This document shows positions 15,985 through 63,073 of a DNA stretch of 64,000 bases, one piece after another. The stretch comes from Candidatus Promineifilum breve (lineage in GTDB: Bacteria > Chloroflexota > Anaerolineae > Promineifilales > Promineifilaceae): positions 2,892,726 through 2,956,725 of the forward strand of contig NZ_LN890655.1 of NCBI RefSeq assembly GCF_900066015.1. Direction: 5' to 3'. Both the position numbers and the translations under genes were made by a program. Each line of letters starts with the position of its first letter. Position 1 is the first letter of the stretch. The notes beneath the pieces were generated by a model, which had not been told where the DNA came from, did no database searches, and was given only the letters and a program-made list of their open reading frames with translations.

Positions 15985-16644
15985 ATGGTGGGTCTGCTGT
16001 GGGAACTATTCAATCTGTTAAAGGAAGTCGCCAACCGGGTGCTCAAGCTGCCGGAGTTCTTGCTGACCCTGGTGGGGGTGCGCTTCGGCAAGCGGTTGCG
16101 GGTGCGGGTGGTGGTGCTGCGCGACGAGCGCGGGCTGCCGCTGGCTAGTGACGCCGAGGTGCGGCCGGCCTATGAGGAGGCGCAGCGCATCCTGGCCCGC
16201 ATGGCCGGGGTGGCCGTGGAGCCGGCCGGCTGGCGGGTGGTGACCGCGCCCCACGCCGCACCCAAGGCGGCGCTGGACGTGCGCTGCACCGATGGCGCCT
16301 GGCGGGATGATTTGGGGCAGGCGGGGGCGTTCTTCCGCAGCCTGATGGCCTCGACGCCGGCCGGGATGCTGACCGGCTACGGCCAGCCGGTGACGGTCTT
16401 CGTGGTACGTTCGATGACCACCCACAACGGCTGCTCGCTGGGCGCGGCGGCCGATTACGTGACGGTGGAGGCCAAATCGCTGCGCACGGCGCGGCGGCTG
16501 CTGGCCCACGAGGTGGCCCACGCCTGCGGGCTGTGGCATAGCAAGCGGCCGAATAACCTGATGCTGCCCCAGGGGCCGGGCGAGGAATTAACCCATATGC
16601 AGGCGGCGGTGCTGCGGTCGTCGCGGCACGTCACCTATTTTTAA
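15985..16644 (+). CDS. Small metzincin-type zinc metallopeptidase-like protein
   Basis: 219 residues. The motif HEVAHACGLWH fits HExxHxxGxxH, the zinc site of metzincins, and NNLMLPQG shortly after could supply the Met-turn. A hydrophobic N-terminus of 20-30 residues (LLWELFNLLKEVANRVLKLP) looks amphipathic rather than a clear signal peptide. ORFs of this kind are usually annotated as hypothetical. Peptidase activity is inferred from the zinc motif; target unknown. Confidence 0.65.
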   Translation: MVGLLWELFNLLKEVANRVLKLPEFLLTLVGVRFGKRLRVRVVVLRDERGLPLASDAEVRPAYEEAQRILARMAGVAVEPAGWRVVTAPHAAPKAALDVRCTDGAWRDDLGQAGAFFRSLMASTPAGMLTGYGQPVTVFVVRSMTTHNGCSLGAAADYVTVEAKSLRTARRLLAHEVAHACGLWHSKRPNNLMLPQGPGEELTHMQAAVLRSSRHVTYF

Positions 16645-16647
16645 TTA

Positions 16648-16755
16648 TGAATTAGGAATTAGGAATTATGAATTATGAATAAAGAGTGGTGGGTGGCACG
16701 CTCTATCTTAATTCGCAATTCCTAATTCGTAATTCGTAATTCCTAATTCGTAATT
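16648..16755. repeat. AATTAGG/AATTCGT inverted array hairpin
   Basis: GAATTAG/GAATTAT 7-mers are followed, after a short unique loop, by AATTCGT/AATTCCT 7-mers in inverse sense. The right arm ends directly at the next start codon and contains no Shine-Dalgarno sequence. Confidence 0.75.
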
Positions 16756-17631: not shown

Positions 17632-17765
17632 AGAAGAAGAGTGATCCGCAGATTTCGCAGATTACGCAGATTAAGAAAACATTCTTAAAAATCTGCGTAA
17701 TCTGCGAAATCTGCGGATCATATCTCTTAAATCTGTGAAATCTGTGTAATCTGTGGTTGCTCTTT
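17625..17765. repeat. Nested 9-mer hairpins
   Basis: An outer pair (ACCACAGATT ... AATCTGTGGT) encloses an inner complete hairpin of GCAGATTAC/GCAGATTTC 9-mers with arms starting GATCCGCAGA and ending TCTGCGGATC. The inner element appears to have inserted into the outer one. Confidence 0.75.
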
Positions 17766-21813: not shown

Positions 21814-24345
21814 ATGAACACTCTGCGGATCAAGACGTGGCGGGATTTGTGGCTCTATCGGGCGCGGACGGCGCTGGTGGTCATCGCCATTGCTGTGGGC
21901 GTGGCCGCCGGCGGCGTGGCGACGACGAGCCTGATCGTGCTGCGCCGCGATTTACGGGAGGGGTACGCGGCCACCAACCCGGCCCACGCCATCCTCGACG
22001 TTTCCTATATGAATGAAGGGCTGGCCGAGCAAGTGGCCGATCTGCCGGAGGTGGACGGGGCGGAGATACGGCGCGCCACATCAGCGCGGCTCATCCTGGA
22101 CGGCGAGGCGCGCCCGCTGCAATTGGCGACGCTGCCCGATTTCGCCGCGACGACAATCGCCTTGCTGCGGCCGGAGGCGGGGGCGACCGTGCCGCCGCCG
22201 GAGGGGGCGCTGCTGCTGGAGCGTTCGGCCGGGGCGGCGCTGGGCATCGCGCCGGGCGACGTGTTGACCGTGCGGCTGCTGGACGGCGACGAGGCGCAAT
22301 TGGCCGTGGCCGGCTTCGTCCACGATCTGGCCGTGGCCCCGACGACGGTGCAGCCGGGCGTCAACGGCTACATCACCGACGCCACGGCGGCGCGGCTGGG
22401 GCTGCCGGAGGCGTATAACCAGCTCTATCTGACCGTGGCCGCGGCCGACCCCGACCGGGCGGCGGTGGAAGCGGCGGTGACGGCCGTGGGCGAATGGCTG
22501 GCGGACGAGGGCGTAGTGGTGACGCGGGCCTCGATTCCCGAGCCGAACGTCCACCTGATGCAGGGCAACGTCGATACCGGCCTGCTGATGATCGGCATCC
22601 TGGGCGGGCTGACGCTGCTGCTGGGGGCGTTTTTGGTGACCAATGTGATGTCGGCCGTCGTCGCCCAGCAGGTGCCGATCATCGGCGTGCTGAAGGCGTT
22701 GGGCGGCGGGCGGCGGCTGGTGCTGTGCCATTATGGGCTGATGGTGCTCATCTTTGGGCTGCTGGCGCTGTTGTTGGCCGTGCCGCTGGGCCTGTTCGGC
22801 GCTTACTTCATGTCCAGCTTTCTGGCCGGGCAACTCAATTTCGACATTCCGTCGTTCGGGCTGCCGTGGCCGACAGTGGTCGTGCAACTGGCCGGGGCGC
22901 TGCTGGTGCCGGCCCTGGCCGCGCTGGGGCCGGTGCGCACGGCGGCGGGACTGACCATCCGCGAAGCCCTGGGTGGAATGTCGAATGACGAATTACGAAT
23001 GACGAATTCAGAGCGCGTTCGTCATTCGTCATTCGGAATGCGCCATTCGTCACTTGTTCTCGTGGTTTGGCGCAACGTGGCCCGGCGCAAGGGGCGGCTG
23101 GCGCTGACGCTGGCGGCGCTGAGTCTGGCCGGGGCGCTGTTCATGGCGACGTTTGGGCTGCGGCTGGGGCTGGAGGCGGCGATTGAGATATTGGTCAGTG
23201 AGTTTCCCTATGACGTGCAGATCGATTTTGCCGAGGGGGAGGATGGGCGGTTGGTGGAGCGGGTGGCCGGGGAGGCAATGCAGGGGAGCGGGGGGGCAGG
23301 GGAGCAGGGGGGCACGTCCCTCGCCCTGGGGGAGAGGTTAGGAGAGGGGCTTCGATTTGAACTGTGGGGCGTGGCTGACGCGCGGCGGGTGTATGGCGAT
23401 GGCCGGGTGGGCAGCAGCTTCACCCTGTTCGGCGTGCCGCCCACGACGCGGATTGCGCCCTTTGCCGAGGGAGCGGGGCGGTGGCTGGAAGCGCAGGGGG
23501 GCAGGGGAGCAGGGGTGCAGGGGGGCGGCGAACTCTACATCAATTACGAGGCTGAGAAGTTGATTGGGCGGCCGGCGGTGGATGATGGGCTGATCATCCG
23601 GGTCAATGGGGATGAGGAGCAACTGTTGCGGCTGGTCGGCATGAGCCTGCGGCCGTTCGACGCTCAGGCGTACATACCCTACGAAGCCTTCGAGGAATTG
23701 ACGGGGCGGCGGGGGGAGGTGGGGCGGCTGGTAGTGTATCTGGGGGAAGCGCAGGGGAGCGGGGGAGCAGGGGAGCAGGGGTGCTCTTTCTCCCCTGCTC
23801 CCCTGCTCCCCTGCCCCCCTGCTAACGAAACAGCCGTCGCCAACGCCCTCGTAGCCGCCTTCGAAGCCGCCGGCATGCCCGTGGCGCGGGCGGAGACGGC
23901 GACCAGCATCCGCGACGGCTACCGGGCGCAGTTCAACAATCTGGTGGTGCTGCTGATGGCGTTGGCCGGGCTGACGGCGCTGGTGGGCGGGCTGGGGCTG
24001 GCCAATACGATGGCCCTCAACGTGCTGGAGCGCTCGCGGGAGATCGGCGTGCTGCGGGCGATGGGGGCGCGGCGGCCGTTGTTGCGGCGGCTGGTGCTGG
24101 CCGAGGGGCTGGCCGTGGCCCTGCTCAGCGCCTTCTTCGCCGTGTTGCTGGCCGTGCCCCTGACGCTGGCGCTGGATCGGGTGATGGGCGTTTCGCTGCT
24201 GGGCAGCCCGCTGGCCTTCGCCTTCGCGCCGGGGGCGGCGTTGGGCTGGCTGGGGCTGGTGGTGGTGATTGGGTTGGTGGCGTGTTGGGTGCCGGCGGAG
24301 GGGGCGGGAAGGATGACGATCAGGGAGGCGTTGGCGTACGAGTGA
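21814..24345 (+). CDS. MacB/FtsX-like ABC transporter permease with in-frame repeat insertions
   Basis: 843 residues from ATG 21814 (MNTLRIKTWRDLW). The frame is open from 21550 but that part overlaps the ATPase gene. Two FtsX-like halves: an N-terminal TM helix, an extracytoplasmic domain and three TM helices (near residues 255-370), then a second helix, domain and TM block (residues 700-840). LDVLL-type FtsX motifs and MTIREAL ends recur in both halves. Four stretches are encoded by repeats: residues 389-413 (GAATGAC hairpin), 489-500, 562-572 and 646-670 (GGGGAGCA arrays). It pairs with the preceding ATPase to move lipoprotein, lipid or peptide substrates. Confidence 0.85.
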   Translation: MNTLRIKTWRDLWLYRARTALVVIAIAVGVAAGGVATTSLIVLRRDLREGYAATNPAHAILDVSYMNEGLAEQVADLPEVDGAEIRRATSARLILDGEARPLQLATLPDFAATTIALLRPEAGATVPPPEGALLLERSAGAALGIAPGDVLTVRLLDGDEAQLAVAGFVHDLAVAPTTVQPGVNGYITDATAARLGLPEAYNQLYLTVAAADPDRAAVEAAVTAVGEWLADEGVVVTRASIPEPNVHLMQGNVDTGLLMIGILGGLTLLLGAFLVTNVMSAVVAQQVPIIGVLKALGGGRRLVLCHYGLMVLIFGLLALLLAVPLGLFGAYFMSSFLAGQLNFDIPSFGLPWPTVVVQLAGALLVPALAALGPVRTAAGLTIREALGGMSNDELRMTNSERVRHSSFGMRHSSLVLVVWRNVARRKGRLALTLAALSLAGALFMATFGLRLGLEAAIEILVSEFPYDVQIDFAEGEDGRLVERVAGEAMQGSGGAGEQGGTSLALGERLGEGLRFELWGVADARRVYGDGRVGSSFTLFGVPPTTRIAPFAEGAGRWLEAQGGRGAGVQGGGELYINYEAEKLIGRPAVDDGLIIRVNGDEEQLLRLVGMSLRPFDAQAYIPYEAFEELTGRRGEVGRLVVYLGEAQGSGGAGEQGCSFSPAPLLPCPPANETAVANALVAAFEAAGMPVARAETATSIRDGYRAQFNNLVVLLMALAGLTALVGGLGLANTMALNVLERSREIGVLRAMGARRPLLRRLVLAEGLAVALLSAFFAVLLAVPLTLALDRVMGVSLLGSPLAFAFAPGAALGWLGLVVVIGLVACWVPAEGAGRMTIREALAYE
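22979..23052. repeat. In-frame GAATGAC/GTCATTC hairpin inside the permease gene
   Basis: GAATGAC, GAATTAC, GAATGAC units, a short loop GAGCGCG, then ATTCGTC units in inverse sense. It lies between the two FtsX halves, where length is probably tolerated. Confidence 0.8.
23279..23823. repeat. Three in-frame GGGGAGCA arrays inside the permease gene
   Basis: Arrays at 23279-23313, 23499-23528 and 23749-23823; the last is an inverted pair. The first continues into CCTCGCCCTGGGGGAGAGG, another G-rich repeat. All are open in the permease frame and encode Gly/Ala/Gln-rich loops. Confidence 0.75.
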
Positions 24346-44084: not shown

Positions 44085-44126
44085 TAGTTAAGTTCTCAGC
44101 ATGTTATAAGCACGATGTGCTCTCTG

Positions 44127-44210: not shown

Positions 44211-46499
44211 ATGAGAACCTTCACTCGCTCCCTGGCCGCGCTGCTGATCATGCTGGCCGCCACCGTCCTCTCGGCCGCGGCCTATCAGCCTGCCGCCGAT
44301 CGCGCCCCGATGGAAGACCTGATCATCCCCGCCGCCGACCTGACGGCCGACATCGAGAAGGGCACGACCATCATCGGCGGCGCGCTGGCCCCGGAATTGG
44401 CGAGCGGCGCGTCGTTCACCACAGAAGTGATCGAAGCGCCCATCCCATTCAACGCCGTCGTGCCCCATTGGACGGGCGACAACGCCGAAACCATCAGCCT
44501 GCAAGTGCGCACCGGCCCCGACGGCGCGACGTGGGGCGATTGGCTGGCCGTCCACGCCAATCACGACTGGATGGAGCCGGGCGAGACGGAGATCGTCGGC
44601 GAGATGGTGCTCGTGCCCCAGGCGGGCGTGACGCATCGCTTTGTTCAGGTGCAGGTGCTCTTCAATTCTCCCGAAACCGAGTTTTTTCCTGAAAACTCGG
44701 TTTCTACCCCCAGCCTCAGCCGCCTGCGCCTGACCTTCATCGACACCCACGACGGCCCCACGGCCGACGAACTGCTCGACCTACAGTCCGAGATCGACAA
44801 GGACGCGCCGCTGCTGCTGCCGGAGGCCCTGACCAACTACCCCAAGCCGTTCGTCGTCAGCCGCGCCGCCTGGTGCCAGCACGCCGATTGCAACTACAGC
44901 GACGGGCTGGAGTTCCATCCGGTCAGCCATCTCATCGTCCACCACACCGTGTCCAACAACGCCAGCGCCGACTGGCCGGCCGTGGTGCGGGCCATCTGGA
45001 ACTTCCACACCTACAGCCGCGGCTGGGGCGACATCGGCTATAACTACCTGGTCGATCCCAACGGCGTGCTCTACGAAGGGCACAACGGCGGCGAGGACGT
45101 GGTGGGCGTCCACGCGTCGGGGGCCAACACGGGCAGCATGGCCCTGGCCCTGCTGGGCACGTTCACGGCCTACTCGCCCGGCATCCGCCCGCCGGACGCC
45201 ATGCTCAATTCGGCCGTCGAGCTGCTCGCATGGGCCGCCGACCGGCGCGACATCAACGTCTTCGACGCCAGCGACGCGCTGCCTGATATAGCGTGGGGCC
45301 TGCCCCACCTGATGGGCCACCGCGACGTCTACGGCACGACGGAGTGCCCCGGCGACCAGGCCCATCTGCTCATCCCCTGGCTGCGCGAGCAGATCGCCGG
45401 GCGCATCGGCCTGGTCGATCCCTTCCTCTATGCCGACGACCAGACCACGGCCTTCACCAAAAGCGCCGGCGCCAACTGGTTCGTGCCGCCCTACCTGTGC
45501 GGCTTCAACAACCACGCCTGGTACACCTGGTCGGTCGATAGCCCGGCGTCGAGCGCCAACTGGGGCGAATGGCGGCCGAACATACCGGCGACAGGCCGCT
45601 ATCGCATCGACGTCTACGCCCCCTATTGCCGCACCGGCCGGGGCGAGACGGGCAGCGCCACCTATACCATCAGCCACGCCGGCGGGGCCGGCACGCGCAC
45701 CATTAACTTGCAGGCCAACATCGGCCTGTGGACGACGCTGGGCGAGTACAATCTGAGCCAGGGCAACGGCAACGTCATCCGCCTGACCGATTTGACCGGC
45801 GATAGCGGGCTGGGGGTGTGGTTCGACGCCGTGCGCCTGCTGCCGCTGAGCACGCCGCCGCCGCCCCCGCCGCCGCCCGCGCCCAATAACGTGGATCCGG
45901 GGGTGGGCAACTGGCGCACCAACCGCAACGTGGCCTTCGCCTGGCAAATCGCCAACCCGGAGATGGTGACGGTGACCACGCTGCAAGTGGCCGTCGATCC
46001 CGGCTTCGGCAATGTGCTGGTGAACCAGAGTTGGTTCGGCGCGCCGACGAGCCACAGCCACACCTTCGGCCAGGATTACCCCGACCTGTACTGGCGGGTG
46101 TTGGTGGCCTGGTCGGGCGGGCCGCTCATCTCCAGCCTGCCGACGCGCTTCCGGCTGGACGCCACGCCGCCGCAATCGGCCGTGGGCACGCCGCTCTACT
46201 ACCTGCCCCGGCTGGGCCGCTACGTGGTCGGTTGGAGCGGCGACGACGCGCTGGCCGGGGTCGATCGCTTCCACGTCGATTTCCGCCCGGCCGGCGGCAC
46301 GTGGACGCGCTGGCTGAGCGACACGCGGCTGCGCTCGGCCAACTTCGCGCCGCCGGTGGCGGGGCAGGTGTACGAGTTTCGCTCGCAGGCCATCGATGCC
46401 GCCGGCAACGTGGAACCGCCCGCCGCCGCGGCCGATGCCACCACCGCCGGGGCCATCCACCTGCCGGACACGCTCTTTTTGCCCAACCTCCGGCGCTAA
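44211..46499 (+). CDS. Secreted PGRP/amidase_2 protein with golvesin-like and Fn3-like domains
   Basis: 762 residues from ATG 44211, giving a signal peptide (MRTFTRSLAALLIMLAATVLSAAA). Residues about 220-405 are a peptidoglycan-recognition/N-acetylmuramoyl-L-alanine amidase domain: VSRAAWCQH, LIVHHTVS (Zn His), WGDIGYNYLVDPNGVLYEG, LMGHRDVYGTTECPGD (Zn His/Cys). Residues 440-545 resemble a golvesin C-terminal domain (GRYRIDVYAPYC ... GVWFDAVRLLPL). A poly-Pro linker and Fn3-like domains end the protein. A palindromic repeat at 44673-44704 encodes PETEFFPENSVST in frame near residue 160. It probably cleaves or binds cell-wall material outside the cell. Confidence 0.85.
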   Translation: MRTFTRSLAALLIMLAATVLSAAAYQPAADRAPMEDLIIPAADLTADIEKGTTIIGGALAPELASGASFTTEVIEAPIPFNAVVPHWTGDNAETISLQVRTGPDGATWGDWLAVHANHDWMEPGETEIVGEMVLVPQAGVTHRFVQVQVLFNSPETEFFPENSVSTPSLSRLRLTFIDTHDGPTADELLDLQSEIDKDAPLLLPEALTNYPKPFVVSRAAWCQHADCNYSDGLEFHPVSHLIVHHTVSNNASADWPAVVRAIWNFHTYSRGWGDIGYNYLVDPNGVLYEGHNGGEDVVGVHASGANTGSMALALLGTFTAYSPGIRPPDAMLNSAVELLAWAADRRDINVFDASDALPDIAWGLPHLMGHRDVYGTTECPGDQAHLLIPWLREQIAGRIGLVDPFLYADDQTTAFTKSAGANWFVPPYLCGFNNHAWYTWSVDSPASSANWGEWRPNIPATGRYRIDVYAPYCRTGRGETGSATYTISHAGGAGTRTINLQANIGLWTTLGEYNLSQGNGNVIRLTDLTGDSGLGVWFDAVRLLPLSTPPPPPPPPAPNNVDPGVGNWRTNRNVAFAWQIANPEMVTVTTLQVAVDPGFGNVLVNQSWFGAPTSHSHTFGQDYPDLYWRVLVAWSGGPLISSLPTRFRLDATPPQSAVGTPLYYLPRLGRYVVGWSGDDALAGVDRFHVDFRPAGGTWTRWLSDTRLRSANFAPPVAGQVYEFRSQAIDAAGNVEPPAAAADATTAGAIHLPDTLFLPNLRR
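44673..44704. repeat. In-frame palindromic repeat type B
   Basis: GAAACCGAGTTTT...AAAACTCGGTTTC inside the amidase coding sequence; two related copies lie at 62215 and 62368 in a spacer. Confidence 0.85.
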
Positions 46500-49400: not shown

Positions 49401-49503
49401 ACCACAGATTGCCCAGATTTCACAGATTTAATCAAGAAAGTGGGTAGTGGACAGTGGTCAGTATCCAGACTGACCACTGTCCACTACCCACTGCTTCTTT
49501 CTT
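49401..49503. repeat. 9-mer array and perfect CAGTGGN hairpin upstream of nuoA
   Basis: ACAGATT units, then a near-perfect long hairpin (arms AGAAAGTGGGTAGTGGACAG and inverse, about 49435-49500). It lies between the divergent response regulator and nuo genes; a TGCTATAAAT box follows at about 49521. Confidence 0.75.
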
Positions 49504-56248: not shown

Positions 56249-56325
56249 GATCAGTGAACAGTGGACAGTGGTCAGTGGGCAGTATCGAGATTCTGCCCAC
56301 TGACCACTGTCCACTGCCTACTGTT
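56249..56325. repeat. CAGTGGN hairpin between the two nuoM genes
   Basis: ACAGTGGACAGTGGTCAGTG, a short loop, then CCCACTGACCACTGTCCACTG. The arms pair almost perfectly. Confidence 0.78.
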
Positions 56326-56339
56326 CTGAAGGCGAAACT

Positions 56340-61494: not shown

Positions 61495-62202
61495 ATGGAA
61501 GCATTAGGTATTAACTTAGGCTACCTGCTGACACAGATTCTGGGTATCACCGCCTTGCTGCTGATCCTGTCCGCTTTTGTCTACAAGCCGATGTTGCGCG
61601 TGCTGGACGAGCGGAAGGCGCGCATTGCCAAGGGCCTGGAAGACGCGCGACAGGCATCGATCGCCCGCGAGAACGCCGACATGGAAGCCAAGCGCATCCT
61701 GGACGAGGCCCGCGCCGAAGCCGCCACGCTGCGCCGCGAGGCCGTTGTGGCCGCTGAGGGCGCCGGCAAGGACGTGGAGGCCAAGGCCCGCGAGGATGCA
61801 CGGGCTATCGTCGCCAACGCCCAGGCCGATGCCACCGAGGAGCGCAACCGTATTCTGGCCGACTTGCGCGGTCAGGTGGCGGCCATCTCCATCGCCGCCG
61901 CCAATCGGCTGGTCGGCGATTCGCTGGATGAAAAGCGCCAGCACCAACTCATCAACGATTTCTTCAGCCGCGTACCGGCCGGCGTGTCGGAACTTCAGGG
62001 CGAAAAGGCCGAAGTCACCAGCGCCCTGCCGCTGACCGACGCCGAGAAGCAGTCGGCGATGAAGATGTTGGGCGTCAAGGACGTGCAGTTCAAGGTCGAT
62101 CCGTCGATCCTGGGCGGCCTGGTGGTGCGCGTGGGCGACCGGGTGGTGGACGACAGCGTCTCCAACCGCATGAGCGCCCTGCAAGAATCGCTGCGCCGCT
62201 AA
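61495..62202 (+). CDS. atpF: ATP synthase F0 subunit b with delta-like C-terminus
   Basis: 235 residues, longer than the usual 160. The N-terminal TM helix (LLTQILGITALLLILSAFVYKPM) and a long Ala/Glu/Arg coiled coil are typical of subunit b. The C-terminal 65 residues (VTSALPLTDAEKQSAMKMLG ... VDPSILGGLVVRVGDRVVDDSVSNRMSALQESL) match the C-terminal domain of subunit delta. It is thus a partial b-delta fusion without the delta N-terminal helical domain. GAGGAAAA precedes ATG 61495. No atpH, A, G, D or C follows. Confidence 0.9.
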   Translation: MEALGINLGYLLTQILGITALLLILSAFVYKPMLRVLDERKARIAKGLEDARQASIARENADMEAKRILDEARAEAATLRREAVVAAEGAGKDVEAKAREDARAIVANAQADATEERNRILADLRGQVAAISIAAANRLVGDSLDEKRQHQLINDFFSRVPAGVSELQGEKAEVTSALPLTDAEKQSAMKMLGVKDVQFKVDPSILGGLVVRVGDRVVDDSVSNRMSALQESLRR

Positions 62203-62214
62203 TTATGGGTTCCG

Positions 62215-62248
62215 AGAAACCGAGTTTTTTCCGAAAAACTCGGTTTCT
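62215..62248. repeat. Palindromic repeat type B
   Basis: AGAAACCGAGTTTTTTCCG and inverse arm, 12 bases after the atpF stop; related to the in-gene copy at 44673. Confidence 0.85.
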
Positions 62249-62249
62249 A

Positions 62250-62362
62250 GTTAGCTCATCACTCTCGTTGAGAGGGGAGAAGACGGCCGCCGCGCCGAAA
62301 CGGCAGCCTTGCATGGCAGATACGAACAGGCTGGGGATTGTGATCGCCCGGCCTGTTTTTTT
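62250..62362 (+). promoter_or_regulatory. Candidate attenuator/riboswitch-like leader with terminator
   Basis: A structured 110-base stretch lies between two type B palindromes. It shows a CTCTC-GTT-GAGAG hairpin, a GCCG...CGGC stem and an intrinsic terminator. The segment CAGCCT (62304-62309) can pair with AGGCTG (62328-62333), which is the left side of the terminator stem, so the two folds exclude each other. This is the logic of an attenuator for the CDP-alcohol phosphatidyltransferase gene. No known riboswitch class was recognised. Confidence 0.35.
62325..62362 (+). terminator. Intrinsic terminator after the F0 genes
   Basis: ACAGGCTGGG pairs with CCCGGCCTGT (one G-T pair) and is followed by seven T residues (62356-62362). 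It ends the nuo/F0 transcript or attenuates the downstream operon. Confidence 0.7.
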
Positions 62363-62367
62363 GCCGG

Positions 62368-62409
62368 CCCTAGAAACCGGGTTTTTTCCTAAAAACCCGG
62401 TTTCTAGGG
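62368..62409. repeat. Palindromic repeat type B (GGG variant)
   Basis: CCCTAGAAACCGGG and CCCGGTTTCTAGGG arms around a T-rich and A-rich centre; compensatory changes relative to the copy at 62215 keep the stem. Confidence 0.85.
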
Positions 62410-62449
62410 CCCACATTATGCAACCTGTGCAGTCTGATAGGGGAATAAT

Positions 62450-63073
62450 ATGAACCCGGATCAGCCCATCAAACAACGCGCCACACTGACCGACCAGTTG
62501 CGCCTACGCGCCAAGGTCATCATCGATCCCATCGTCGACGTGTTGGCCCGCTATAAGCTGGGGCCGGACTTCCTGACGGTGCTGGGCTTCCTGACCCATA
62601 TCTTCTTTGCTTACCTGCTGGCTATAGGCGAGTTTCGCTGGGCGGCGGTGGCCATCGCCCTGCTGTCGCCGCTGGATGCGCTGGACGGCGCGCTGGCCCG
62701 CAAGCTGGGCCGCAAGCAGGGCGGCTTCGGCGCGTTCCTCGATTCCACCCTCGACCGGCTGGCCGAGATCGTCCTCTTCGGCGGCTTCATCTATTACTAC
62801 TATGCCCAGGCCGATCAGACCATGCTGGCCGTGGCCTATCTGGCCGTCACCGGCTCGTTGATGGTCAGCTACGCCCGCTCGCGGGCCGAGGCGCTGGGGT
62901 TCGAGGCCAAGATGGGCGTCCTCAGCCGCGTCGAGCGCTACGTGGTGCTCGTCGTCTTCCTGGCCCTCGAACTGCCCCACATCGCCCTGGCGATTTTGGC
63001 CGCGTTCACCTACTTCACCTTCTTCCAGCGCATGTGGGCCGTCTGGCAGCAATCGCGCGAGCCGAACGAGTAG
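62450..63073 (+). CDS. CDP-alcohol phosphatidyltransferase (PIP-synthase-like)
   Basis: 207 residues, about five or six TM helices. The motif DALDGALARKLGRKQGGFGAFLDSTLD fits D-x2-D-G-x2-A-R-x8-G-x3-D-x3-D. SYARSRAEALG resembles phosphatidylinositol-phosphate or archaetidylinositol-phosphate synthases. It transfers a CDP-lipid phosphatidyl group to an alcohol (glycerol-3-phosphate or inositol-phosphate) in the membrane. lgt follows after 3 bases, so both serve membrane lipid/lipoprotein synthesis. Confidence 0.85.
   Translation: MNPDQPIKQRATLTDQLRLRAKVIIDPIVDVLARYKLGPDFLTVLGFLTHIFFAYLLAIGEFRWAAVAIALLSPLDALDGALARKLGRKQGGFGAFLDSTLDRLAEIVLFGGFIYYYYAQADQTMLAVAYLAVTGSLMVSYARSRAEALGFEAKMGVLSRVERYVVLVVFLALELPHIALAILAAFTYFTFFQRMWAVWQQSREPNE

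What the first reader, a model, noticed from the sequence alone, without database searches (positions are those of the whole stretch)
44673..44704. Palindromic type B repeat coding inside a secreted amidase
The same palindrome that occurs twice in the spacer after atpF encodes PETEFFPENSVST in the amidase. This parallels Rickettsia palindromic elements that insert in frame into proteins. The reading frame and the stem are both intact.
Basis: partly seen in the sequence, partly recalled or inferred. Interest (0 to 1): 0.6.

Follow-up and report, generated by a model that had tools for sequence, protein, structure and literature searches.

The report
Mobile-type DNA hairpin inside an amidase
A 32-letter hairpin sits about 90 times in this bacterium's genome and is the repeat that brackets a transposase-like gene in relatives from several phyla; in about ten places, this amidase among them, it lies inside a protein gene and is translated without breaking it, which is a known but uncommon fate of such repeats.

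Summary
The perfect palindrome at 44673-44704 is read in frame (PETEFFPENSVST) inside a secreted Amidase_2 protein, and two more copies lie in the spacer at 62202-62450. The genome has 92 copies (up to 3 mismatches; 0 with the reversed pattern). About 72% are between called genes; neighbours are mostly convergent pairs. About 10 copies, in 9 genes, are truly inside reading frames. One, in a GH13 glucosidase, is a clean +12-residue (36 bp) insertion against four relatives 82-86% identical. In the amidase, five orthologs at about 70% identity lack the palindrome, but the loop varies in length, so insertion there is likely rather than shown. The Rickettsia comparison is fair as an analogy. The element itself is a REP (repetitive extragenic palindrome): in a genus-mate, a poribacterium, a planctomycete, a Litorilinea and a Calothrix, the same GAAACC-type hairpin lies beside a REP-associated tyrosine transposase (RAYT) of one clade, mostly on both sides. 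The poribacterial copies match the commonest copy here letter for letter. This genome lacks that RAYT, so its REPs look orphaned. In-frame REPs inside genes are already published: a new family of a known kind.

The parts
44673..44704 (+). REP palindrome, in frame inside the amidase gene (encodes ETEFFPENSVS)
44211..46499 (+). secreted amidase gene carrying the REP (likely start; the open frame begins at 44115)
   Evidence: Amidase_2 (residues 238-384) and Golvesin_C (420-545)
44652..44732 (+). approximate variable loop region between conserved VQVQVLF and LSRLRLTFID, in which the REP lies
   Evidence: five genus-level orthologs without the palindrome, loop 1-6 residues shorter
62216..62247 (+). 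second REP copy, 13 bp after the stop of the upstream gene
62373..62404 (+). third REP copy, GGG/CCC variant, stem extended by flanks to 21 bp arms

Best explanation
The palindrome is a REP, a repetitive extragenic palindrome of the kind handled by REP-associated tyrosine transposases (RAYT/TnpA_REP). A RAYT of the 'YHxYNRG...PNHYH...YIHLNP' clade, bracketed by the same hairpin in relatives, presumably spread it through the genome as single-stranded hairpins. In this genome that RAYT is now missing (shown by search), so the copies look orphaned (inferred). Most copies survive between genes. A few landed in gene segments coding for variable loops; five of the six reading frames of the element have no stop, so when the net length change is a multiple of three the host protein stays open and carries about 11-12 extra residues. 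The amidase copy is one of these and is most likely neutral. Shown: copy number, distribution, in-frame reading, RAYT flanking in relatives, and a clean +36 bp insertion in one other gene of the genome. Inferred: movement by RAYT, the insertion event in the amidase itself, and neutrality.
For: 92 near-identical copies, reversed-pattern control 0. 66 intergenic, 8 at gene edges. 15 of 19 close neighbours are convergent + - pairs, P = 1e-6. RAYT bracketed by the hairpin: genus-mate G281, REPs 7 bp past the stop and 15 bp before the ATG; Poribacteria, 8 and 6 bp away, REPs letter-identical to the commonest own copy; Litorilinea and Calothrix, genomes added only in a later search. Pirellulaceae and classmate G087 have the hairpin on at least one side within 20 bp, and Planktothricoides has many arms around it. 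NCBIfam calls these RAYTs REP_Tyr_transpos, the G281 protein below the cut-off, the Planktothricoides protein above it. GH13 gene: +12 residues against four relatives 82-86% identical. Two more genes with indels at the element: glycosyltransferase-like L040, 9-11 residues longer than several relatives, and a Type ISP enzyme, 29 longer than its ortholog, with both REPs of a convergent pair read in frame.
Against: The window's own genome has no RAYT of this clade: its best match is 31% identical, with no hairpin within about 1.4 kb. Two RAYTs of the wider clade (L305, L288) have no GAAACC hairpin beside them. The hairpin lacks the usual GTAG or CGTC head. The amidase loop differs in length between orthologs, so the ancestral empty site cannot be pinned down.
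Confidence: 0.86

Rival explanations
1. It is a Rickettsia-type palindromic element whose main way of life is insertion into protein genes, kept because the encoded peptide is tolerated.
For: Several in-frame copies inside real proteins; five of six frames open; 7 of 10 in the hydrophilic ETEF...NSVS frame.
Against: About 10 of 92 copies in genes where roughly 75-84% would be expected at random (P < 1e-37; coding density from my own gene calls in the window). The repeat is bound to RAYT genes in relatives.
Confidence: 0.06
2. It is an intrinsic terminator or an mRNA 3'-end stabiliser spread by selection.
For: Strong hairpin. 22 of 38 intergenic copies within 25 bp of a gene have a gene 3' end as nearest neighbour.
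Against: 16 of 64 intergenic copies lie between divergent genes, where a terminator makes little sense. The U run is short. Near-identity across 92 sites including loops, convergent pairs and in-gene copies are not expected of terminators.
Confidence: 0.04
3. It is a miniature element moved by another transposase (for instance a DDE enzyme with TA target duplication).
For: Flanks often read CTA...TA.
Against: Column -1 is A in only 43 of 92 copies while +1 is T in 90 of 92, so there is no symmetric duplication. No other transposase was seen bracketed by it, but I did not search for all families.
Confidence: 0.04

Closest known systems
REP sequences with RAYT/TnpA_REP (REPtrons; Nunvar 2010 PMC2817692, Di Nocera 2013 PMC3733652, 2018 TnpAY1 survey PMC6006769)
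   Same: Short palindrome, about 100 copies, mostly extragenic, inverted pairs, brackets a tyrosine transposase gene in relatives, some copies in frame inside genes.
   Different: No GTAG or CGTC head; stem GAAACCnRGTTTT of 13-14 bp; the same core recurs in Chloroflexota, Poribacteria, Planctomycetota and Cyanobacteria; in this genome the matching RAYT is absent.
Rickettsia palindromic elements (RPE)
   Same: Palindrome read in frame inside unrelated proteins. Di Nocera 2013 files RPE-4 and RPE-6 under CGTC REPs.
   Different: Here mainly extragenic and without a CGTC head. RPE-1 is described there as a longer insertion. No RPE sequence was compared here.
REPINs (Bertels and Rainey 2011, PMC3116915)
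   Same: Two hairpins in inverted orientation a short distance apart.
   Different: Spacers (15-146 bp) look unrelated between pairs, so I see no sign that the pair is copied as one unit; single copies are common.

Membership tests
REP (RAYT-associated palindrome) | short (20-40 bp) palindrome in many copies | tested here: met
   32 bp, 92 copies
REP (RAYT-associated palindrome) | predominantly extragenic | tested here: met
   about 10 of 92 inside genes; gene calls are my own codon-usage calls
REP (RAYT-associated palindrome) | often in inverted pairs | tested here: met
   15 of 19 close neighbours + -
REP (RAYT-associated palindrome) | same palindrome brackets a RAYT gene in relatives | tested here: met
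   both sides in G281, Poribacteria, Litorilinea, Calothrix
REP (RAYT-associated palindrome) | cognate RAYT in the same genome (usual, not required of orphan sets) | tested here: not met
   only a distant RAYT, C1:556427, unflanked; so this would be an orphan set
GTAG or CGTC REP superfamily | GTAG or CGTC tetranucleotide at one end | tested here: not met
   5' flank mostly C[T/C][A/C] before GAAACC
Rickettsia palindromic element | in-frame copies inside proteins | tested here: met
Rickettsia palindromic element | sequence kinship with known RPE families | not tested
   no RPE sequences were compared
intrinsic terminator | location at transcript 3' ends only | tested here: not met
   16 of 64 intergenic copies between divergent genes

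The most novel reading that the evidence does not exclude
One RAYT clade with a headless GAAACC-type REP has spread across at least four phyla with its hairpin almost unchanged (letter-identical between Poribacteria and this chloroflexote), and its REPs repeatedly enter the same protein loops, supplying new in-frame peptide segments.
Probability: 0.35. Interest if true: 0.6.

Novelty: new member of a known kind. Interest (0 to 1): 0.42.

Why it matters
It ties a palindrome seen as an oddity in one gene to a defined transposase clade, gives good cases of REP-made protein segments (GH13, Type ISP enzyme), and shows a REP core shared across phyla. That makes it testable whether RAYTs carry their REPs along in horizontal transfer.

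Tried and rejected
PF01797 alone missed the key RAYT in G281 (E = 0.032); it was found only because a hit next door showed the hairpins. The three Y1 genes of the own genome were checked for nearby hairpins, also degenerate ones: none. Eight ORF calls that placed a REP 'inside' a gene (L030, L032, L053, L061 twice, L065, L076 twice) were set aside because a better start lies downstream of the REP (inference from the translations). AlphaFold of the amidase part alone was useless (pLDDT 34). The core sequence was not found as this repeat in the text of the paper library (two unrelated hits).

Full report
What is there. The 32-bp palindrome GAAACCGAGTTTTTTCCTGAAAACTCGGTTTC lies at 44673-44704 in the open frame of a secreted Amidase_2 protein and is read as PETEFFPENSVST. 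Two relatives of it lie at 62216-62247 and 62373-62404. All three fold strongly as single strands.

Census. The window lies in a 5.03 Mb genome of three contigs. With up to 3 mismatches the pattern occurs 92 times and its reversed control never. Density is 9.5 per Mb on contig C1 and 54 per Mb on C2. I fetched about 4 kb around every copy and called genes with a codon-usage model trained on the window: 66 copies intergenic, 8 at gene edges, 18 inside called ORFs. Reading the translations, 8 of the 18 lie upstream of a better start. That leaves 10 copies in 9 genes: a B12-binding radical SAM protein (L025), four membrane or glycosyltransferase-like proteins (two in L036, L038 near its C-terminus, L040), a GH13 glucosidase (L043), the window amidase (L044), a Type ISP restriction-modification enzyme with two copies (L056), and a protein with the REP near its C-terminus (L063). 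Families are; L040 and L063 have no Pfam match above cut-off. At coding densities of 0.75 to 0.84, 10 of 92 has P below 1e-37, so copies in genes are strongly depleted.

Anatomy. Oriented by the asymmetric loop, copies read CC[T/C][A/C/G]-GAAACC[GAG or GGG]TTTTTTCYTGAAAA[CTC or CCC]GGTTTC-T. Of 19 neighbours closer than 400 bp, 15 are + then - (P = 1e-6), with spacers of 15-146 bp that look unrelated. The 5' side faces the nearer gene in 51 of 64 intergenic copies; pair members are not independent, so that P value is optimistic.

In-frame insertion. The clearest case is the GH13 gene. Relatives G094, G281, G035 and G399 (82-86% identical) read RV-GQAQ-AR or similar, this genome RV-RKETEFPGRNSVSGDP-AR: exactly 12 more codons. 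The L040 protein is 9-11 residues longer than several relatives at the REP, while G399 carries a REP in the same loop in the other orientation. The Type ISP enzyme has 29 residues more than its G035 ortholog at the convergent REP pair, inside its Type_ISP_C domain. In the amidase, orthologs in G094, G035, G281 and G399 at 69-72% identity, and more distant ones, lack the palindrome; in the four closest the loop between VQVQVLF and LRLTFID is 1 to 6 residues shorter and differs in sequence. Insertion is the best reading there, but the empty site cannot be reconstructed. Frames: 7 of 10 use ETEF...NSVS, 3 use RNRVxKKKxGF, the latter in PMT-like membrane proteins. The bias is weak (P = 0.05).

Origin. 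In genus-mate G281 a 189-aa RAYT is bracketed by it. In a poribacterium a 191-aa RAYT is bracketed by copies letter-identical to the commonest copy here. The Pirellulaceae RAYT has a GAAACCCGG hairpin 17 bp from its start and a variant hairpin at 1310-1343 that overlaps the end of its called ORF. G087 has one hairpin right after its stop. Planktothricoides has many arms around its RAYT. Litorilinea and Calothrix genomes, which had been picked for holding the palindrome, proved to have RAYTs of this clade with such hairpins on both sides. In a quick tree the G281 and poribacterial RAYTs group together (support 0.85), with G087 next; Pirellulaceae and Planktothricoides group apart with the CCCGG form. 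Other RAYTs of the wider clade have hairpins of other sequence. The own genome has no RAYT of this clade; its nearest, C1:556427, is 29-31% identical and unflanked, though it passes the NCBIfam cut-off for a REP-associated transposase.

Known background. Nunvar et al. 2010 (PMC2817692) describe RAYTs as always flanked by two inverted REPs. Di Nocera et al. 2013 (PMC3733652) report REPs inside coding regions in several species and file Rickettsia RPE-4 and RPE-6 among CGTC REPs. The 2018 survey (PMC6006769) notes REPs inserted within tnpA_REP genes themselves without disrupting the frame. So the mechanism class is known. This family has neither GTAG nor CGTC head, and its core was not found as a repeat in the open paper library.

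Verdict. An ordinary REP by kind, with a new sequence family, an orphaned host, an unusually wide spread of the same core, and several good cases of REP-made protein segments. The amidase copy is a likely, not a proven, insertion.

Noticed in passing
G000 contigs C1 and C2: REP density is nearly six times higher on C2 (54/Mb) than on C1 (9.5/Mb).
   Followed up: no
L036:3076-5280 (-) and L341: Another repeat (AATTACGAATTA-like) also appears translated in proteins: ITNYELRITNSE in the L036 protein and MTNDELRMTNEED in the G035 Type ISP ortholog.
   Followed up: no
L285:455-3273: In Poribacteria the RAYT with its REPs lies between a cas4-like and a cas1-like gene (my reading of the translations).
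   Followed up: no
L334 vs L040: Orthologs in two species carry a REP in the same loop in opposite orientation, suggesting independent insertion or inversion.
   Followed up: partly
L284:64-564: An IS200-like Y1 transposase gene lies right next to the REP-flanked RAYT in G281.
   Followed up: no
window 16643-16741, 17642-17720, 23751-23822, 49439-49492, 56249-56326: Several other families of inverted repeats with longer arms fill spacers of the window.
   Followed up: no
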